From: Paludisphaera rhizosphaerae
GTDB taxonomy: Bacteria > Planctomycetota > Planctomycetia > Isosphaerales > Isosphaeraceae
Assembly: GCF_011065895.1 (NCBI RefSeq)
Contig: NZ_JAALCR010000002.1
Location: forward strand, 1-64,000
Direction: 5' to 3'
Length of the DNA stretch: 64,000 bases
A model generated the notes under the pieces. The model ran no database searches, was not told where the DNA came from, and saw only the letters and a list, made by a program, of their open reading frames with translations. Position numbers and translations under genes: made by a program. This document shows, piece after piece, positions 3,627-15,291 of the stretch (positions are counted from its first letter, which is position 1; the number at the start of each line of letters is the position of its first letter).

Positions 3627-5249
<1,623 letters not shown>

Positions 5250-5271
5250 TCCTGAGTTTCTCCTGACCTTC

Positions 5272-5315
5272 GAGCCGGGGCGAGGGCTTCCAGGAGCCTC
5301 GCCCCGGCTCCTTTT
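5272..5315 (+). terminator. Intrinsic terminator after groEL copy 2
   Basis: Perfect 14-bp GC-rich stem: GAGCCGGGGCGAGG at 5272-5285 pairs with CCTCGCCCCGGCTC at 5297-5310, 11-base loop, followed by CTTTT. It separates the chaperonin unit from dnaJ. Confidence 0.9.
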
Positions 5316-5460
5316 CAACCCCTTCGCCGCCCCTCGTTCCGGCTGGGACGGTGCGGCCCCTGCATGCTAAGATATTGATACACGACCAGGGACAGCGCGA
5401 GGCTCAGGGAGGGCCGTCGCGAGGCGTCCCGGCAAGCTCGACCGCCGAGGCTTCGTGACG

Positions 5461-6615
5461 ATGGCGACCACCAAACGCGACCTATACGAAGTCCTCGAGA
5501 TCAAACGCGATGCGTCCGGCGACGAGATCAAACGCGCCTACCGCCAGATGGCGCTGAAATTCCACCCCGACCGCAATCCCGGCGACAAGGAAGCCGAGCG
5601 GAAATTCCGCGAGGCCGCAGAGGCCTACGACGTCCTCTCCGACGCCCAGAAGCGCCAGCGATACGACCGCTACGGCCACGCCGGTCTCGACGGCTCGGCC
5701 TTCCACGACTTCCGATCGGCCGACGACATCATGTCGGCCTTCGGCGACGTCTTCGGCGGCGGTCTGCTCGGCGACCTCTTCGGAGGAGGCGGCGGTCGGC
5801 GCGGGCCTCGCCAGGGGCCCGACCTCCTGATGCGGTTGGAAATCAGCCTCAACGAGGCCGCCCGAGGGACGACCCGCACGATCGAGGTCGATCGGCAGGA
5901 CTTCTGCGGCGAGTGCAAGGGCTCGGGAGCGCGCAAGGGGACCGTGGCGACGACCTGCAACTACTGCGGCGGTCGTGGTCAGGTCGTCCAGACCCGCGGC
6001 TTCTTCCAGGTCGCGACCGCCTGCCCCTCGTGCGGCGGCGAGGGAGTCAAGATCACCGACCCCTGCCCCAGCTGCCACGGCTCAGGCCGGGTGCCGCACC
6101 GGGCCAAACTTCAGGTCGACGTTCCGGCGGGAGTGGAGACCAACATGCGGCTCCAGCTCCGGCAGCAGGGAGAACTCGGCGATCCCGGCGCGCCTCGCGG
6201 CAACCTTCAGATTCAGATTCTCGTCCGCAAGCACGAGTTCTTCGAGCGCCGACGCAACGACCTGATCTGCCAGGTGCCGATCAGCTTCGCCCAGGCGGCT
6301 CTCGGGGCTGAGATCGAGGTTCCGACGCTGGACGGGCCCGACCACGTTCAGATCCCCCGAGGATCTCAGAGCGGGGACCAGATCCGGCTCAAGGGACGAG
6401 GAATGCCCGACATCAGCGGTCGCGGCAAGGGAGACGAGATTGTCGAGGTGATTCTGGAGACCCCCCGCCACCTGACGCCGCGCCAGGAGGAACTCCTCCG
6501 CGAATTCGCCGAGACCGAGCACGAGCAGGTCAGCCCTCGACGCAAGAGCTTCTTCGAAAAGCTCCGTGACTACTTCACCGAAGAGGCCGAACCTGAAGAA
6601 CGCGAGCAAGCCTGA
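5461..6615 (+). CDS. dnaJ: Chaperone protein DnaJ (Hsp40)
   Basis: Co-chaperone that delivers unfolded clients to DnaK and stimulates its ATPase. The 384-residue protein has the full type-I layout: J domain at residues 5-70 with HPD at 35-37, a Gly/Phe-rich linker ([19 protein letters not shown]), four zinc-binding CxxCxGxG repeats near residues 149, 166, 188 and 202, and a C-terminal peptide-binding domain. ATG 5461 is chosen; a GTG 6 bases upstream in the same frame is possible but starts too close to the Shine-Dalgarno. No dnaK lies in the window; grpE follows after 48 bases. Confidence 0.95.
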
Positions 6616-7760: not shown

Positions 7761-8747
7761 TCAATAAGCCTCCGCCGCGACGATCTCACCGCCGCTCGAA
7801 GTGCTGATCGCACGCCAGACAGGTAGCGCGATACCATCGCGGAAAAATCGCACTCCACCGTCCGCAGTCGCCGCATTGACTCCCTTGGCAGAGTGGTGGC
7901 TTCGAGCCGCGTAATTGTCTGGCAGCGCCGTGGTCGAGCCCAGGCAGGGCGGGTTTGGCGGCCCATCCTGGCAATAGTAGGCGCTAAATAGTACGTCGGG
8001 AAAAGAACTATTCGGCGCGAGGTAGGTCTCGAAACACGCAGCGTCTCCCCACCAGGAGAAACCGCGAAGGTCCCGCCCTTGACCCACGATGACTTCAGAG
8101 ACCATCAAGGTCGTGCTGAGGCCGTCGGTGAGCGATGGGAAACCGACCGTCGGCTTGCCTGGACGGCCGAGATCGGTCAGCGGGGAGCCGATATCGACGA
8201 ACGGGGCTCCTCTGAACTGTACGTCCAGGAAATCGATCTGTAGTTGAATCGAATTCCCGAAATTCACCGCATAGTTTTGGGACGTGCAGGCGTAAGTCGT
8301 TCCGTTCATGGCCTCGGATATGGGCGCGTTCCGGCTGTCCGACGGGCAGAGGAAGACGTTCACCCACTGCGAGGTCGTGCTCCGATTGGCCGCCCCAAAG
8401 AACCGCAGATCCTGATCGAACGCCTCCGGCCAACCAACGGCGTTGCTGCCCGCGTTGTTCCAGGAGTTGTACAGCGCTTGCCGTTCGATCTGAGGAAGGA
8501 TCGAGATCAGCCAGGTGCCCCAGCAGCACCCTTTCTTCCCGGGCGGCAAGGTCCCCTGCACGTCAACGTAGCCGTGCATCGCCAAGGCGAGCTGCTTCAA
8601 GTTATTCACGCATTGTGAACGCCGGGCCGCCTCGCGAGCGCTCTGCACCGCGGGTAGGAGCAGCGCGAGCAGGATGCCGACGATGGCGATCGAGACCAGC
8701 AACTCGATTAGAGTGAAACCAGCCTGCTCGGATCTCCCAGTCATCAT
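7761..8747 (-). CDS. DUF1559 prepilin-like protein
   Basis: The 328-residue protein opens with a type IV prepilin cleavage/methylation motif, [15 protein letters not shown], at about residue 10, and a hydrophobic helix, so it is processed and assembled or anchored like a pseudopilin. [21 protein letters not shown] and the late segment ending [16 protein letters not shown] are the marks of DUF1559 (SBP_bac_10), a family hugely expanded in Planctomycetes whose function is unknown. ATG 8747 follows GGAGGAG. A longer in-frame start at 8807 is rejected because it would run into the upstream gene. Confidence 0.92.
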
Positions 8748-8763
8748 TGGCTCCTCCGCATAG

Positions 8764-9231
8764 TCAAGGCGTTCTGTGCCTTCCACCTGGATCGAAAGAC
8801 TCTCCAAGGGTCGAAGCGACGTCGAACTTCAGGTGGTTTGAGGAGTCGTCACGGATCTCGATGATACGCGTCGACCGAACATTCAGGTCGGCGGGGATTC
8901 TCTCGATCATTGGGCGTTTCGTTCGATCGCTGCCGCCTGGGGGAACCGGAGCCTGCTGGCGGCTAGCGGAGTAGATTCGAACGCGATACGACCCCGGCAT
9001 GAGCCCCTGCGAGGCCGGGATGGCGAATCCTCCACCACGTATTCGAGCCCCTGTCGACATGGCAGGGCCGCTCGACGTCGCTTCGAACGAGATCGCCCCC
9101 GAATCAAGGGCCTGCCCGTCGACGCAGACCTCGCCGGTGATCGGCATCCTGCCTTCCTCATCGGGGTTTGCGCATCCCGCCAAGCCATAGACTCCAAGAA
9201 CAAAACAGGCGAACGCCTTCGGATTTCTCAT
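8764..9231 (-). CDS. Small lipoprotein, transthyretin/carboxypeptidase-regulatory-like
   Basis: The 155-residue protein starts with a lipoprotein signal ([10 protein letters not shown] lipobox, Cys near residue 20). The mature part reads as a single beta-sandwich: [20 protein letters not shown], then [14 protein letters not shown], then a closing strand near HLKFDV. This is the usual companion of DUF1559 genes in planctomycetes; its biochemical role is unknown. It lies only 16 bases upstream of the DUF1559 gene on the same strand, so the two are probably one operon. Confidence 0.8.
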
Positions 9232-9433
9232 GTGAACTCAAATGCGTGTCGTAAATCGAAGATCTTGGATTGGAAGTTGCGTTACAAATTTGATCGAAGT
9301 CAAAAATGTTTCCCTTCAACGCATGGTCTTGGATGCAACTTTCATGCCTCGAAAAAGTTGAACCCGAAGACGGCGGCCTACGCACCAACTAGTGAGAGGC
9401 GCCATACCGTTCGAGCCATCGCGAGCCATTCCC

Positions 9434-10279
9434 ATGGGCCACTACGACGATGATTCTCGCCTGCTGGCCGACTTCCTTGAGAAATCGGACCCTGAGGCTT
9501 TCGCCGCCCTCGTAGCTCGATTCGGCCCGCCAGTCCTTCGGATTTGCCGAACGATCCTTCCCGATCGGCATCTCGCCGAAGATGCGTTTCAATCGACGTT
9601 TTTGACCCTCTACCAGAAGGCCGGAAACATCCGAGATCCCTCGGCGCTCAGGGCATGGATCTGTGGGACCGCCTACAAGACCGCGGCCCGAATTCGAGCA
9701 GGGGCGATTCGCAGGGCTAAGCTTGAAAAAGGCTGCGATCTCGACCAGACGGAGGGGCAGGCGTCATTCGTCGACGTCTCCGACCATGATCTGTTCTTGG
9801 TCGTTCGGAAGGAACTCGACCGCCTCCCAGCCAAGTATCGAGCTCCGATCATTCTCTGCTATCTGGAAGGGTTGACCCACGAACAGGCCGCGGCCGAACT
9901 CGGTTGGGCGACCGGGACGGTTAAGGTACGCCTGGTACGGGGCCGCAAGCTTCTACGTGAGCGACTCGACCGCCGCAAAATAGCTTTGGCAGCCGGGTTG
10001 ATCGGCCTCTGGAGCCGCGAGGCTGGGGCCGCCGATCCCTCTCTGATCACCACGACTCTGAATGCAGCTAAAAGGAGCGCTCGTATCAGCGCGCTTTGCG
10101 AGTCGCCTCGCGTCCTGGATCACCGCTCAGTAACCCGACTTGTGCTCGTCCTCGTCTTGGCCTGCGCCGCGGTATCGGCAGCCCGGGCCATGTCTGCTGT
10201 CGGAGCGCCGCCTGAAGACGCGGAATCAACCCTCCTGCCGACGAACTTGACCGATCTCCTCAACAGTGATTGCTCATAA
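9434..10279 (+). CDS. ECF sigma factor with C-terminal membrane helix
   Basis: The 281-residue protein is an RNA polymerase sigma factor of the ECF type. Region 2 is visible near residues 15-80 (EAFAALVARFGPPVLRICR and EDAFQSTFLTLYQKA) and region 4 near 130-185 (LPAKYRAPIILCYLEGLTHE then GTVKVRLVRGRKLLRERL). After region 4 there is an extension with one membrane helix near 235-252 (LVLVLVLACAAVSAARA), so the sigma factor may be tethered. ATG 9434 is chosen; GTG 9392 in frame is an alternative, and neither has a strong Shine-Dalgarno. It is divergent from the lipoprotein/DUF1559 pair. Confidence 0.85.
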   Translation: MGHYDDDSRLLADFLEKSDPEAFAALVARFGPPVLRICRTILPDRHLAEDAFQSTFLTLYQKAGNIRDPSALRAWICGTAYKTAARIRAGAIRRAKLEKGCDLDQTEGQASFVDVSDHDLFLVVRKELDRLPAKYRAPIILCYLEGLTHEQAAAELGWATGTVKVRLVRGRKLLRERLDRRKIALAAGLIGLWSREAGAADPSLITTTLNAAKRSARISALCESPRVLDHRSVTRLVLVLVLACAAVSAARAMSAVGAPPEDAESTLLPTNLTDLLNSDCS

Positions 10280-10454: not shown

Positions 10455-11168
10455 ATGATGAACACCGAGGTGAACGCGTCAAGCGATGGGATCGATTCGG
10501 CTGCATCACATGGGACGATCACTCGTTCGCTTGGAGATAGGCGCTCGTTCCTCAAGTCAGCGCTCGTCGGCTCGGGTGCTTCTGCCATGGCAGCAGCGGC
10601 TTCGCACCCGGCTCACGCAGCCTCCACTCCGAACACTGTGCCGGCGCTCTACCCCGGCTGGAACGCCATGAATTTCAGCAACATTCGCAAGGATGAGAAC
10701 GCCCACGTGGGATTCCTTGTGAATGCCCTAGGGCCGATGGCGCGGCCGAAGCCGACCTTTCGGAATCTCATTCAACCCACAGCCCGGGCGTTCGCGAACG
10801 TCTCGAGGGTTCTGGAGAATGTGGGGGTGGGGGCTTATCTGGGGGCGCTGCCCGCGATCCAGTCGAAGTCGTACATGGCTGCTGCGGCCTCAATCGCGCT
10901 CATCGAGGCTCGTCACGCTGGATATTTGAATACTCTTTTGAATATCCGCGTCTCAGAGAATATTCACAGCGACGAGCCCAGCCTTGAGGAGGCCCTGACG
11001 CCCGACGAGGTGGTTGAACTGGCGGGATCGTTTTTCGTGAGCCTCAACGGAGGTCCTCCGCTGCTGCCGCTGACTAGTGATATCGACATCCTCAACTTTG
11101 CACTGGCTCTCGAATTCCTCGAGGCCGAGTTCTACAACCTGAACGTGCCCAGATTCTTGCACGTCTGA
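10455..11168 (+). CDS. Tat-exported ferritin-like protein, helix order apparently permuted
   Basis: The 237-residue protein has a twin-arginine signal (RRSFLK at residues 29-34, then a long alanine-rich stretch), so it is exported folded. It contains the helices of the PF13668 ferritin-like family, which often carry di-iron ligands: DENAHVGFLVNALG near residue 78, ENVGVGAYLGALPAI near 128 and ALIEARHAGYLNTLL near 150. The helix that normally comes first, ILNFALALEFLEAEFY, is instead at residues 211-226, next to the C-terminus. Iron binding is not shown. AGGAG lies 5 bases before ATG 10455. It follows the ECF sigma gene by 175 bases. Confidence 0.75.
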   Translation: MMNTEVNASSDGIDSAASHGTITRSLGDRRSFLKSALVGSGASAMAAAASHPAHAASTPNTVPALYPGWNAMNFSNIRKDENAHVGFLVNALGPMARPKPTFRNLIQPTARAFANVSRVLENVGVGAYLGALPAIQSKSYMAAAASIALIEARHAGYLNTLLNIRVSENIHSDEPSLEEALTPDEVVELAGSFFVSLNGGPPLLPLTSDIDILNFALALEFLEAEFYNLNVPRFLHV

Positions 11169-12413: not shown

Positions 12414-13799
12414 TTAGATGTGAACCGACTCGCCGAGCCCCTGGCCGGCGGCTTCCATGATGGATTCGGAGAAGGTCGGGTGCGGGTGCATGGCGTGGAG
12501 GATTTCTTCCTCAGTGGCTTCCAGGCGCATGGCCATGACCATCTCGGAGATCATCTCGGTCGCGACGGCCCCAATGATGTGGGCGCCGAGCAATTCGCCG
12601 TACTTTTTGCCGAAGATCAGCTTAACGAAGCCCTCGCTCTCGCCGGCGGCCAGAGCGCGGCCGCTGAACGCGAACGGGAACTTGCCGATCCGGATGTCGT
12701 GACCCGCGGCGCGGGCGGCTTTCTCGGTGAGACCCACGCTCGCCACGCCCGGCTCGGTGTACGTGCAGCCGGGGATGATCGAGTAGTCGACGTTGTGCTT
12801 CGAGTGCCCGGCGATCCGCTCGACGCAGTAGACCGCCTCGTGGTGGGCGACGTGCGCCAGCCAGGGAGGGCCGATCACGTCGCCGACGGCGTAGATGCTG
12901 GGGATGTTGGTCACGAACCCGTTGTCGCGGGCCACCTTGATGTGGCCGCGGTCGATCTCAACCTTCACGTCGGGAGCGAACAGGCCCTCGACGTTGCCGG
13001 TCACGCCGATGGCGACCAGGGCCACGTCGGCCTCGATGGTCTTCTTGCCCTGGGGGGACTCGATCTCGGCCTTCACGCCGTTGGCGGTCTTCTCCAGCTT
13101 CGTGGTCTTCGAGCTGGTGAAGATTTCCAGGCCCTTGGCGGTGAGGCTTTTCTTGAGGGTGTCGGAGACCTCCTCATCCTCGATCGGCAGGACGTGGTCC
13201 TGCATCTCGACGACCGTGACCTTGGTCCCGATCGCGTTGTAAAAGTAGCCGAATTCCAGCCCGATGGCGCCCGCGCCGATGATGAGCATCGCCTTGGGCT
13301 GCTTCTCCAACGACATCGCCTCCTTGGAGGTGATGATCTTCTTGCCGTCGAATTCGACGCCGGGGAACGGCCGAGGCCGAGCGCCGGTGGCGATCACGAT
13401 GGCGCCGGCGGTGAAGGTCTCATTGCCGACCTTCACCTTGTTGGGGCCGACGACCTGGGCGACGCCGATCTTCGACTTCACCTTGTACTTGCGGAACAGC
13501 CCTTCGATGCCCTTGTTGAGCTGGCCGGCGACGCCTCGGCTGCGGCCGATCATCTCGTCGAATTTCCACTCGCCCTGTCCGTGGAAACCGAACTTCTCGC
13601 CGTGGCGCTTCACCAACTCGACGAGGTGGGCGTTGGAGAGGAGAGCCTTGGTGGGGATGCATCCCCAGTTGAGGCAAACGCCGCCGAGCTTGTCGCGCTC
13701 GACGCAGAGGACGTTCTTGCCGAGTTGGGCGGCGCGGATCGCGCCGGCGTACCCGGCGGGGCCGCCGCCGATCACCACGATGTCGTAGTCGTAGGCCAT
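12414..13799 (-). CDS. lpdA: Dihydrolipoyl dehydrogenase (E3)
   Basis: FAD enzyme that re-oxidises dihydrolipoyl groups of 2-oxoacid dehydrogenases with NAD+. The 461-residue protein shows the FAD-binding GGGPAG at residues 11-16, the redox disulfide GGVCLNWGCIPTK with Cys42 and Cys47, an NAD-binding GAGAIGLEFG near 180, a second FAD motif YAVGDVIG and the C-terminal HPHPTFSE with the catalytic His-Glu pair. It lies 169 bases downstream of the E2 gene on the same strand, so it is probably the E3 of this pyruvate dehydrogenase complex, possibly shared with other complexes. Confidence 0.95.
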   Translation of the reverse strand: MAYDYDIVVIGGGPAGYAGAIRAAQLGKNVLCVERDKLGGVCLNWGCIPTKALLSNAHLVELVKRHGEKFGFHGQGEWKFDEMIGRSRGVAGQLNKGIEGLFRKYKVKSKIGVAQVVGPNKVKVGNETFTAGAIVIATGARPRPFPGVEFDGKKIITSKEAMSLEKQPKAMLIIGAGAIGLEFGYFYNAIGTKVTVVEMQDHVLPIEDEEVSDTLKKSLTAKGLEIFTSSKTTKLEKTANGVKAEIESPQGKKTIEADVALVAIGVTGNVEGLFAPDVKVEIDRGHIKVARDNGFVTNIPSIYAVGDVIGPPWLAHVAHHEAVYCVERIAGHSKHNVDYSIIPGCTYTEPGVASVGLTEKAARAAGHDIRIGKFPFAFSGRALAAGESEGFVKLIFGKKYGELLGAHIIGAVATEMISEMVMAMRLEATEEEILHAMHPHPTFSESIMEAAGQGLGESVHI

Positions 13800-13904
13800 G
13801 GTCGTGTGGGGTCTGTTCCGAGGTAGGATTGGGAATCGAGCATCGCCTTGCGACGCCCTGATACCCTCATTATGGGGGGCGATGGCAAGCGGCGGAAGCG
13901 CGAC

Positions 13905-13950
13905 GGCCCCGACGCCGACCTGCGCGGAGACGCGAGATCGGGTCGGGGCC
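13905..13950 (-). terminator. Hairpin between pdhC and lpd
   Basis: GGCCCCGAC (13905-13913) pairs with GTCGGGGCC (13942-13950), enclosing 28 bases. There is no T run on the minus strand after it, so it may be a processing or attenuation hairpin that lowers lpd expression relative to pdhABC rather than a full stop. Confidence 0.4.
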
Positions 13951-13968
13951 TGTAAGAAAGGGGCGGGA

Positions 13969-15291
13969 TCAGAGGAGCATCCGCGCCGGTTCTTCGAGCA
14001 GGTTCTTGAGCGTCCGCATGTAGTCGGCCGCGGTGGCGCCGTCGACGGCGCGGTGGTCGGCGGTGAGCGTCAGGCTCATCACGTTGCCGACGACGATCGC
14101 GTCTCCATCGACGACCGGACGCTTCTCAGCGGCCGAGACGGCGAGGATGGCGACCTCAGGGAGGTTGATGATGGCGTCGAACTGCTTGACGCCGTACATG
14201 CCCAGGTTGCTGATCGTGAACGTCCCCCCGGCCAAGTGATCGCCGGTGAGCGTTCCTCCGCGGGCGGCGGCGGCGAGGGCCTCGCTCCCCTTGCGGATTT
14301 CGATCAGGCCCAGCTCGTCGGCCCGGTGCAGGACGGGGACGATGAGCCCCTCCTCAAGAGCCACGGCGATGCCGATGTTGACTTCGCCGCGAAGGACGAT
14401 GGCGTCGGGCTCGAACGTGGCGTTGAGCGCGGGGTGACGGCGAAGGGCGACCGCGACGGCCTTGGTCACGAAGTCGCCGACCGAGAGCTTGACCTTCTCC
14501 GCGGCGAGTTCCTTGTTCAGGGTCTCGCGGAGGGCCAGCAGCTTGTCGACGCGGACGTCGACCGTCACGTGGATCTCGGGGGCGGTCTGCTTGGACTGCA
14601 GCATCCGCTGAGCGATCGTCTTCCGCATCCGCGAGTTCGGAATCCGCTTCTCCTGGAGCGGCCCGGTGGAGATCCGAGCGGCGGGAGCGGCCGGTGCCTT
14701 GGCGGCGGCGGGAGCGGCCGGCGCGGCGGGACGCGCCGTCGGGGCCGGGGCCGGAGCGGCGCCCTTGCCGGCGAGGAAGTCCTCAACGTCCTTGCGGACG
14801 ATGCGACCGCCGGGGCCGGTTCCCCGGACGCGGGCGATGTCGACGCGGGCTTCGGCGGCGACCTTGCGAGCCAGCGGGCTGGAACGGACGCGACCGCCAG
14901 CGGCCGTCGTCACAAGCTCCTCAGCCTCGTCGGATTCGGCGGCCGGCTTCGAATCGGCGGCCTTCTTGCCGTTGTCGGACTCGGCGGGGGCGGCCTTCTT
15001 CGCGGCTCCTCCCGCCGATCCCATCTTGGCGGCGATATCCTTGGGGTCCTCGCCCTTCTTGGCGAGGACCATGACGCGGTCGCCCAGCGCGACCTCGTCG
15101 CCCGCCTTGTGGTCGATGATCGCGATGACGCCGTCCTCGTAGGACTTCATGGGCATCGTGGCCTTGTCGGTCTCGATGTCCGCGAGGACGTCGCCCTCCT
15201 TGATCGTGTCGCCCACCTTCACGAGCCACTGAGCAATGACCCCGCTCTCCATGGTGGGGCTGAGCTTGGGCATGGTCACTTCGATCGGCAC
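13969..15291 (-). CDS. pdhC: Pyruvate dehydrogenase E2 (dihydrolipoamide acetyltransferase)
   Basis: Core of the pyruvate dehydrogenase complex, transferring acetyl from lipoate to CoA. The 440-residue protein has one lipoyl domain (ETDKATM with the lipoylated Lys near residue 43), a long acidic/Ala-Pro linker, a peripheral-subunit-binding domain (SSPLARKVAAEARVD, GTGPGGRIVRKDV near 136-170), a second Pro-Ala linker, and a catalytic domain ending with DHRAVDGATAADYM, the His and Asp of the active site. The start is GTG 15291 with GAGGAG 7 bases upstream. It follows pdhB by 82 bases. Confidence 0.93.
   Translation of the reverse strand: MPIEVTMPKLSPTMESGVIAQWLVKVGDTIKEGDVLADIETDKATMPMKSYEDGVIAIIDHKAGDEVALGDRVMVLAKKGEDPKDIAAKMGSAGGAAKKAAPAESDNGKKAADSKPAAESDEAEELVTTAAGGRVRSSPLARKVAAEARVDIARVRGTGPGGRIVRKDVEDFLAGKGAAPAPAPTARPAAPAAPAAAKAPAAPAARISTGPLQEKRIPNSRMRKTIAQRMLQSKQTAPEIHVTVDVRVDKLLALRETLNKELAAEKVKLSVGDFVTKAVAVALRRHPALNATFEPDAIVLRGEVNIGIAVALEEGLIVPVLHRADELGLIEIRKGSEALAAAARGGTLTGDHLAGGTFTISNLGMYGVKQFDAIINLPEVAILAVSAAEKRPVVDGDAIVVGNVMSLTLTADHRAVDGATAADYMRTLKNLLEEPARMLL

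What the first reader, a model, noticed from the sequence alone, without database searches (positions are those of the whole stretch)
10455..11168. Ferritin-like protein with apparently circularly permuted helices
Known: the PF13668 pattern begins with the helix ILNFAL-LE-LEAEFY and continues with the E-HV-FL and EARHA helices. Seen: here the first helix is the last (residues 211-226) and the others come first. Inference: circular permutation, or loss of the original first helix with a second partial domain.
Basis: partly seen in the sequence, partly recalled or inferred. Interest (0 to 1): 0.62.

Follow-up and report, generated by a model that had tools for sequence, protein, structure and literature searches.

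The report
Naturally circularly permuted ferritin-like protein
A planctomycete gene encodes a probably exported ferritin-like protein whose first helix has moved to the end of the chain while its metal-binding residues are kept, a natural rearrangement predicted to turn the ferritin helix order into the order seen in cytokine bundles.

Summary
Window 10455-11168 (+) encodes a 237-residue protein with a Tat-like signal. It matches Pfam Ferritin_2 (PF13668) in two pieces in the wrong order: profile 33-137 first, then profile 1-24 at the C-terminus. I collected 60 distinct proteins with helices 2-3-4 then helix 1 (window included; chosen by that order). None has even a weak upstream copy of helix 1, and the metal ligands known from tardigrade RvFeMP-1 and D. 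radiodurans DRB0118 are kept in 59-60 of 60. They come from Planctomycetota, Ktedonobacteria and one MAG titled Acidobacteria. A tree without the moved helix puts the 48 permuted rows on one side of a branch (SH-aLRT 99). AlphaFold2 gives a confident four-helix bundle. Helices 2-5 align with RvFeMP-1 (Z 14.6, 1.9 A); the whole bundle aligns with up-up-down-down cytokines (Z 9-11). A normal-order control aligns with RvFeMP-1 over all four helices (Z 22.7), with no cytokine in its top 50. A true circular permutation is well supported. Inferred only: the route (duplication-deletion), cis packing of helix 1, and function (exported di-metal enzyme, possibly a phosphatase). My limited literature searches found no earlier report.

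The parts
10455..11168 (+). coding sequence of the permuted ferritin-like protein, 237 aa plus stop
   Evidence: homologues
10455..10619 (+). N-terminal Tat-like signal (RRSFLK at residues 29-34; RR codons 10539-10544), low-confidence region of the model
   Evidence: TIGR02811 E 0.00052 and TIGR01409 E 0.054, both below their cut-offs; RR invariant in 18 of 18 rows of A1; pLDDT below 50 for most of residues 10-58. Cleavage site not predicted; the end given is an estimate
10659..10739 (+). helix equivalent to canonical alpha2 (residues 69-95), ligands E81 and H84
   Evidence: model; E81 and H84 60 of 60
10782..10856 (+). helix equivalent to canonical alpha3 (residues 110-134), ligand E121, G124
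   Evidence: model; E121 59 of 60, G124 58 of 60
10866..10937 (+). helix equivalent to canonical alpha4 (residues 138-161), ligand E151 and invariant H154
   Evidence: model; 60 of 60 each
10938..11078 (+). linker (residues 162-208) that joins alpha4 to the moved helix; it includes a short alpha5
   Evidence: model; gap between the core match and the helix-1 match median 49 (44-55) in 43 planctomycete-side proteins and 41 (40-47) in 17 of Ktedonobacteria
11001..11033 (+). short helix equivalent to canonical alpha5 (residues 183-193)
   Evidence: model; the normal-order control has a short helix at its C-terminus, 197-207
11079..11159 (+). moved helix, equivalent to canonical alpha1 (residues 209-235), ligands E220 and E223
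   Evidence: PF13668 profile 1-24; aligns with RvFeMP-1 alpha1 (2.5 bits, weak alone); E220 60 of 60, E223 59 of 60; mean pLDDT 97-98 for residues 211-230
9392..10279 (+). adjacent upstream ECF-type sigma factor gene, possibly linked in regulation
   Evidence: Sigma70_r2 and r4_2; a homologue lies just upstream on the same strand in 17 of 51 permuted genes, window and duplicate loci counted

Best explanation
The gene encodes a natural circular permutant of the Ferritin_2 (PF13668) four-helix di-metal domain. The chain now begins at the canonical second helix, runs through helices 3, 4 and the short helix 5, crosses back by a 47-residue linker, and ends with the canonical first helix. That helix drops into its old groove and supplies its two glutamates to the metal site. 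Shown here: the order, its conservation, the intact ligand set, and a predicted single bundle. Inferred: (1) it arose once, by duplication or fusion of a tandem pair and loss of the first helix 1 and the last core; (2) helix 1 packs in cis; (3) the protein is exported by Tat with its metals loaded and acts in the cell envelope as a small di-metal enzyme, not a storage cage. For the chemistry I favour a metabolite phosphatase like DRB0118 (about 0.4), then a di-iron oxidase or peroxide-scavenging role (about 0.35). The confidence below is for the permutation and intact site, not for the chemistry.
For: Two-piece, reversed-order Pfam match. 60 distinct permuted proteins with no upstream helix 1 and ligands in 59-60 of 60. 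Twin-arginine to core distance median 38 residues in the 58 proteins with the motif, which after a Tat signal usually leaves little room for a 25-residue helix. Core-only tree with the moved helix left out: 48 permuted rows on one side of one branch, SH-aLRT 99. AF2 model: block pLDDT 91-98 over residues 71-230 except 78 for 171-180; pTM 0.72 although about a quarter of the chain is a low-confidence signal region. Structure: RvFeMP-1 Z 14.6, 1.9 A, 133 residues, helices 2-5 only; all four helices align sequentially with G-CSF, IL-11 and CNTF (Z 10-11). Normal-order control: RvFeMP-1 Z 22.7, 1.6 A, 155 residues, all four helices, no cytokine in the top 50 rows. phmmer places residues 208-233 on RvFeMP-1 alpha1 and 74-160 on alpha2-4.
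Against: No solved structure of a permuted member was found: the only clear sequence relative in the PDB is RvY_06210. The model rests on 18 aligned sequences and is a monomer. I had no coordinates, so the place of the moved helix was read from two structural comparisons, not measured. Foldseek gave the permuted model no match at E<=0.001 (the control had 7). Z of about 11 for helical bundles can arise from common arrangement (note), and some ferritins also appear at Z 8-9 in that list. The helix-1 hit to RvFeMP-1 is weak alone (2.5 bits). The twin-arginine to core distance reaches 57-65 in a few Ktedonobacteria proteins, so room for a short extra helix is not excluded there, though no helix-1 match is found. 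The core-only tree has few columns (94) and warns of long branches. Asp135, essential in RvFeMP-1, is Gly here. Function is untested.
Confidence: 0.87

Rival explanations
1. Domain-swapped oligomer: the C-terminal helix completes the bundle of a partner chain, so the site is the same but formed in trans.
For: Only a monomer was predicted; RvFeMP-1 is a dimer in the crystal and DRB0118 mainly a dimer in solution (PMC11616004); the linker (40-55 residues between matches) could allow a swap.
Against: The monomer model is confident through the last helix, and pTM 0.72 is near what a single rigid domain of about 178 of 237 residues could give (inference).
Confidence: 0.1
2. Simple truncation: a normal protein lost its first helix, and the C-terminal helix is the start of a second, decayed domain without structural role.
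For: Fused double domains (helix1-core-helix1-core) exist in haloarchaea, and cutting one would leave this arrangement.
Against: The C-terminal helix with its E220 is kept in 60 of 60 permuted proteins from two phyla (all were chosen for having the helix), and the chain ends shortly after it in each of the 18 aligned rows, so it looks selected and not a remnant.
Confidence: 0.03
3. Independent permutations in Planctomycetota and Ktedonobacteria rather than one event.
For: The two groups separate within the permuted set and differ in linker length, median 49 against 41 residues between matches.
Against: The core-only tree needs one change of order on 158 rows, and both groups are opened at the same place, between helices 1 and 2.
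Confidence: 0.07

Closest known systems
Ferritin_2 family PF13668 / desiccation-related ferritin-like proteins, solved member RvFeMP-1 (RvY_06210; PDB 8KCE, 8WAI, 8W9K) and DRB0118 of Deinococcus radiodurans
   Same: Sequence homology, predicted four-helix bundle, ligands E220=E51, E81=E90, H84=H93, E121=E132, E151=D162 (paper numbering); Gly at the RvFeMP-1 Asp135 position and a second Glu on helix 1, as described for DRB0118; short helix 5.
   Different: Helix 1 is at the C-terminus; an extra linker back to it; no IgG-like domain; phosphatase activity untested.
Normal-order PF13668 proteins of Solirubrobacterales (e.g. L083:5424-6050)
   Same: The same seven ligand positions (E67, E70, E98, H101, E140, E170, H173 invariant in the 18 rows of A3); nearest normal-order row to the permuted group by path.
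   Different: Order 1-2-3-4; the model behaves as a standard ferritin-like bundle.
Haloarchaeal fused double PF13668 proteins (e.g. L067, L068, L078)
   Same: Contain the order core then helix 1 inside a longer helix1-core-helix1-core chain, the kind of intermediate that the duplication-deletion route needs.
   Different: Both domains complete; not among the 25 rows nearest to the permuted group, so not shown to be its ancestor.
Long-chain helical cytokines (G-CSF, IL-11, IL-6)
   Same: Helix order and directions of the predicted bundle.
   Different: No sequence relation seen; no metal site of this kind (recalled); resemblance of topology only.

Membership tests
Ferritin_2 (PF13668) | Whole-protein score over the curated cut-off | tested here: met
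   110.7 bits against 24.7; 18 of 18 members of A1 match PF13668 at E<=0.01
Ferritin_2 (PF13668) | Linear helix order 1-2-3-4 as in the profile | tested here: not met
   Profile 33-137 precedes profile 1-24; helix order 2-3-4-5-1 in the model. I therefore call it a circular permutant derived from the family, not a standard member
Ferritin_2 (PF13668) | Di-metal ligands from all four helices | tested here: met
   E81, H84, E151, E220 in 60 of 60; E121, E223 in 59 of 60. Residues only; metal not measured
Ferritin_2 (PF13668) | Four-helix bundle fold | tested here: met
   Prediction only:
RvFeMP/DRB0118 metabolite phosphatases | Metal-dependent phosphatase activity | not testable with these tools
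   Needs an assay; Asp135, needed in RvFeMP-1, is Gly124 here, as in DRB0118, which is active
RvFeMP/DRB0118 metabolite phosphatases | Dimer through helix 4 | not tested
   No dimer prediction was run
4-helical cytokines | Up-up-down-down helix topology | tested here: met
   Prediction only: sequential alignment over about residues 60-237, Z 9-11; topology only
4-helical cytokines | Sequence homology | tested here: inconclusive
   PDB sequence searches list RvY_06210 and no cytokine; 4-13% identity in the structural alignments of the G-CSF, IL-11 and IL-6 rows. Nothing suggests homology

The most novel reading that the evidence does not exclude
A single natural circular permutation moved a ferritin-like di-metal domain from the ferritin topology (SCOP a.25, one crossover) into the helical-cytokine topology (a.26, two crossovers) with the metal site kept, and the new form was then fixed and spread in two bacterial phyla: a natural bridge between two fold classes that are listed apart.
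Probability: 0.72. Interest if true: 0.72.

Novelty: new variant of a known kind. Interest (0 to 1): 0.62.

Why it matters
Natural circular permutations that keep an active site test how far fold topology can be separated from function. Here each helix keeps its ligands while the chain path changes class, so by topology a ferritin-like protein would be filed elsewhere, and the linear-order structure comparisons used here saw only three of its four helices on the known relative. The many normal-order tandem pairs and the fused haloarchaeal proteins give a concrete, testable route. For annotation, a family of Tat-signal-bearing proteins in Planctomycetota and Ktedonobacteria can be assigned a probable metal site.

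Tried and rejected
Hidden N-terminal helix 1: looked for at E<=10 in 60 permuted proteins, none. Chance motif: rejected by the Pfam match and conservation. Viral relatives: one scan of viral contigs, no relative confirmed. Defence-system membership: no PADLOC family up to E 1. Haloarchaeal fusions as the direct ancestor: not supported by the tree. Cage assembly was not tested; I regard it as unlikely from the RvFeMP-1 and DRB0118 literature only. Promoter and terminator scan around the gene: 1 promoter-like site on the other strand (shuffles 0.6 on average, sd 0.9) and 1 terminator-like site (shuffles 2.0); not used. A re-check of the planctomycete PF13668 loci with my own models did not resolve them: only one weak core match.

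Literature: searches showed no report of a natural circular permutation in this family. The library holds open-licence PMC papers only; one search listed 15 of 22 papers, and one search was too loose to be useful (12 of 1,749 listed). PMC11616004: outline and abstract, parts 1 and 2 of 3 of Results, the phosphatase section and the Discussion were read. PMC2894822 and PMC9135769: passages only. All other papers: search listings only.

Full report
What is there. Window 10455-11168 (+) is an open reading frame of 237 residues with an ATG start. It starts with a Tat-like signal (RRSFLK; TIGR02811 E 0.00052 and TIGR01409 E 0.054, both below their cut-offs; RR invariant in 18 of 18 aligned homologues). 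The only Pfam family is PF13668 Ferritin_2, 110.7 bits against a cut-off of 24.7, in two stretches. Whole-genome coordinates show the order: profile 33-137 at window 10623-10943, then profile 1-24 at 11076-11147. Both matches found in its own genome (110 contigs) lie in this protein.

Conservation of the order. A search of 40 related genomes gave matches in 16; 18 proteins, the window's included, were aligned (A1; the L047 fragment was left out). With profile models of helix 1 and of helices 2-4 built from A1 (core E below 1e-4, helix 1 E below 0.05), I classified the order in these 79 loci: 16 loci (17 ORFs) have core then helix 1, 51 have helix 1 then core only, 10 have fused helix1-core-helix1-core, one (L078) has both a fused and a normal protein, and one (L070) shows core-helix1-core with its upstream part out of frame. 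None of these 79 loci mixes the two orders, and no single-core protein has helix 1 on both sides. Adding further genomes gave 72 permuted ORFs, 60 distinct, window included; none has a helix-1 hit upstream of the core even at E<=10. These 60 were selected by having the order core then helix 1. Rows not taken in the added loci were two normal-order proteins (L188, L189) and three with a core match only (L222, L224, L225). The models were built from permuted proteins, so this is a classification of order and not an unbiased census. Distance from the twin arginine to the core is median 38, range 8-65, in the 58 with the motif; the longest, 57-65, are in Ktedonobacteria.

Ligands. phmmer against solved structures aligns residues 208-233 with positions 36-61 of tardigrade RvFeMP-1 (2.5 bits, weak alone) and 74-160 with 80-168. 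Chain index plus 3 gives the paper's numbering (my inference from the residues), so E220, E81, H84, E121 and E151 correspond to E51, E90, H93, E132 and D162, published ligands (PMC11616004). E223 sits where DRB0118 is said to have a second helix-1 glutamate (my reading), and Gly124 corresponds to RvFeMP-1 Asp135, which is Gly in DRB0118 too. Across the 60 proteins E81, H84, E151, H154, E220 and Y227 are invariant and E121 and E223 are present in 59. The exception is L223, a very divergent protein. Normal-order relatives carry the same seven positions.

Structure. AlphaFold2 with 18 permuted sequences (the window plus 17 from the search for related loci) gave mean pLDDT 80.9, blocks of 91-98 over residues 71-230 except 78 for 171-180, and pTM 0.72; helices 69-95, 110-134, 138-161, 183-193 and 209-235. 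Foldseek against the PDB ranks the RvFeMP-1 entries first, probability 1.00, but with E 0.01-0.04 and no match at E<=0.001. VIA-align, on the 545 chains Foldseek passed on, gives RvFeMP-1 Z 14.6, 1.9 A, 133 residues, model 62-204 against chain 53-188, that is helices 2 to 5 without helix 1. The next 23 rows are helical cytokines, hormones and interferons (G-CSF 1pgr Z 11.2; IL-11 4mhl Z 11.0; CNTF 1cnt Z 10.2), each ending at model residues 231-237; a few ferritins follow at Z 8-9. A normal-order control, L083:5424-6050, predicted in the same way (mean pLDDT 76.8, pTM 0.72), gives Foldseek E down to 1.7e-6 and 7 matches at E<=0.001, and RvFeMP-1 Z 22.7, 1.6 A, 155 residues over all four helices; its other top-50 rows are ferritins, bacterioferritins, Dps and ferritin-like proteins, no cytokine. 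From established knowledge of the folds (recalled): ferritin bundles run up-down-down-up with one crossover, and reading them from helix 2 gives down-down-up-up with two crossovers, the cytokine order. The change in the list is therefore what a circular permutation predicts. SCOP a.25 (Ferritin-like) and a.26 (4-helical cytokines) are listed as separate folds in PMC2894822 (passages). Z of about 11 alone would be weak for helical bundles (note); the contrast with the control carries the weight. I had no coordinates, so ligand distances were not measured.

History. In a tree from helices 2-4 only (158 rows after removal of identical cores from 161; 94 columns; quick search; the program warns of few columns and of long branches), the 48 permuted rows are one side of a branch with SH-aLRT 99, and the order changes once. 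The nearest normal-order row by path is from Solirubrobacterales. A second tree (58 permuted rows, 12 normal-order rows that I picked by hand; careful search) splits the permuted set into 43 rows that I labelled Planctomycetota (one, L052, is from a MAG titled Acidobacteria) and 15 from Ktedonobacteria, support 93/95 and 96/82. The gap between core and helix-1 matches is median 49 (44-55) in 43 proteins of the first group and 41 (40-47) in 17 of the second. Loci with neighbouring same-strand PF13668 genes under 400 bases apart number 26 of 79, and fused pairs exist in haloarchaea; both fit a duplication-deletion route, but neither shows it.

Distribution. In 297 genomes of the window's class 41 have some match, and I count 35 with a match over essentially the whole permuted profile (from position 57 or lower to 229 or higher): 26 of the 45 listed genomes of the window's own family f1, 7 in f94 and 2 in f2. 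In 392 genomes drawn from the phylum 5 match, 2 of them full-length, one being the window's own genome. In the class of Ktedonosporobacter (taken to be Ktedonobacteria) 20 of 47 genomes match, 17 full-length, and one more (G665) has it split between frames. Normal-order members occur in Planctomycetota too. Of the 31 of 294 genomes, 25 match from profile position 1-6 onward; five others besides the window's genome match only from position 35 or later, and my models do not resolve their order. In the window's own family L188 (G427, which also has a permuted copy) and L189 (G461) have normal order, and the genome of L052 also holds one. The family name Isosphaeraceae for f1 is an inference: contig G302:C42 and the contig of L053, titled Isosphaeraceae bacterium, have the same length of 20,346 bases.

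Mechanism and function. Shown: order, conservation, ligands, predicted bundle. Inferred: the chain leaves helix 4, forms short helix 5 and crosses back along the bundle so that helix 1 enters its old groove in the old direction and completes the metal site. Tat export, suggested by the twin arginines, would carry a folded, metal-loaded protein. An ECF-type sigma factor gene lies directly upstream (9392-10279), and a homologue lies just upstream on the same strand in 17 of 51 permuted genes, window and duplicate loci counted, which hints at stress control but is unproven. RvFeMP-1 and DRB0118 are reported as low-activity metabolite phosphatases with a di-metal site, and loss of DRB0118 lowers survival of desiccation (PMC11616004); I consider a related hydrolase the most likely function (about 0.4), an iron or peroxide role next (about 0.35).

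Novelty. It is a homologue of a known family with a rearranged chain, so a new variant of a known kind. No report was seen, in a library limited to open PMC papers.

Noticed in passing
L067, L068, L069, L071-L074, L077, L078, L087, L101: Loci of halophilic archaea with two complete PF13668 domains fused in one chain (helix1-core-helix1-core).
   Followed up: partly
L223 (G690), ORF 1492-2226 on the minus strand: Very divergent permuted protein of the Ktedonobacteria set with two ligand positions changed (E121 to K, E223 to S) while the others are kept; possibly a one-metal or altered site.
   Followed up: no
L062:3529-4209 and 4797-5474: Ktedonosporobacter rubrisoli has two permuted genes in tandem and a third copy elsewhere in the genome.
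   Followed up: no
L178, L197 and L179-L181, L198: Two long-branch permuted paralogue groups in the window's own family; three of these genomes (G294, G296, G458) also carry the main form.
   Followed up: no
L047 (G315) and G665:C99: Apparently broken permuted copies: a helix-1 end with an internal stop, and a copy split between frames.
   Followed up: no
window 9392-10279: ECF-type sigma factor gene directly upstream of the permuted gene.
   Followed up: partly
window 7761-8807: DUF1559 (SBP_bac_10) protein with an N-terminal methylation motif, on the other strand.
   Followed up: no
window 12414-15291: Two minus-strand ORFs that look like lipoamide dehydrogenase and dihydrolipoamide acyltransferase (recognised from the sequence, not searched).
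   Followed up: no
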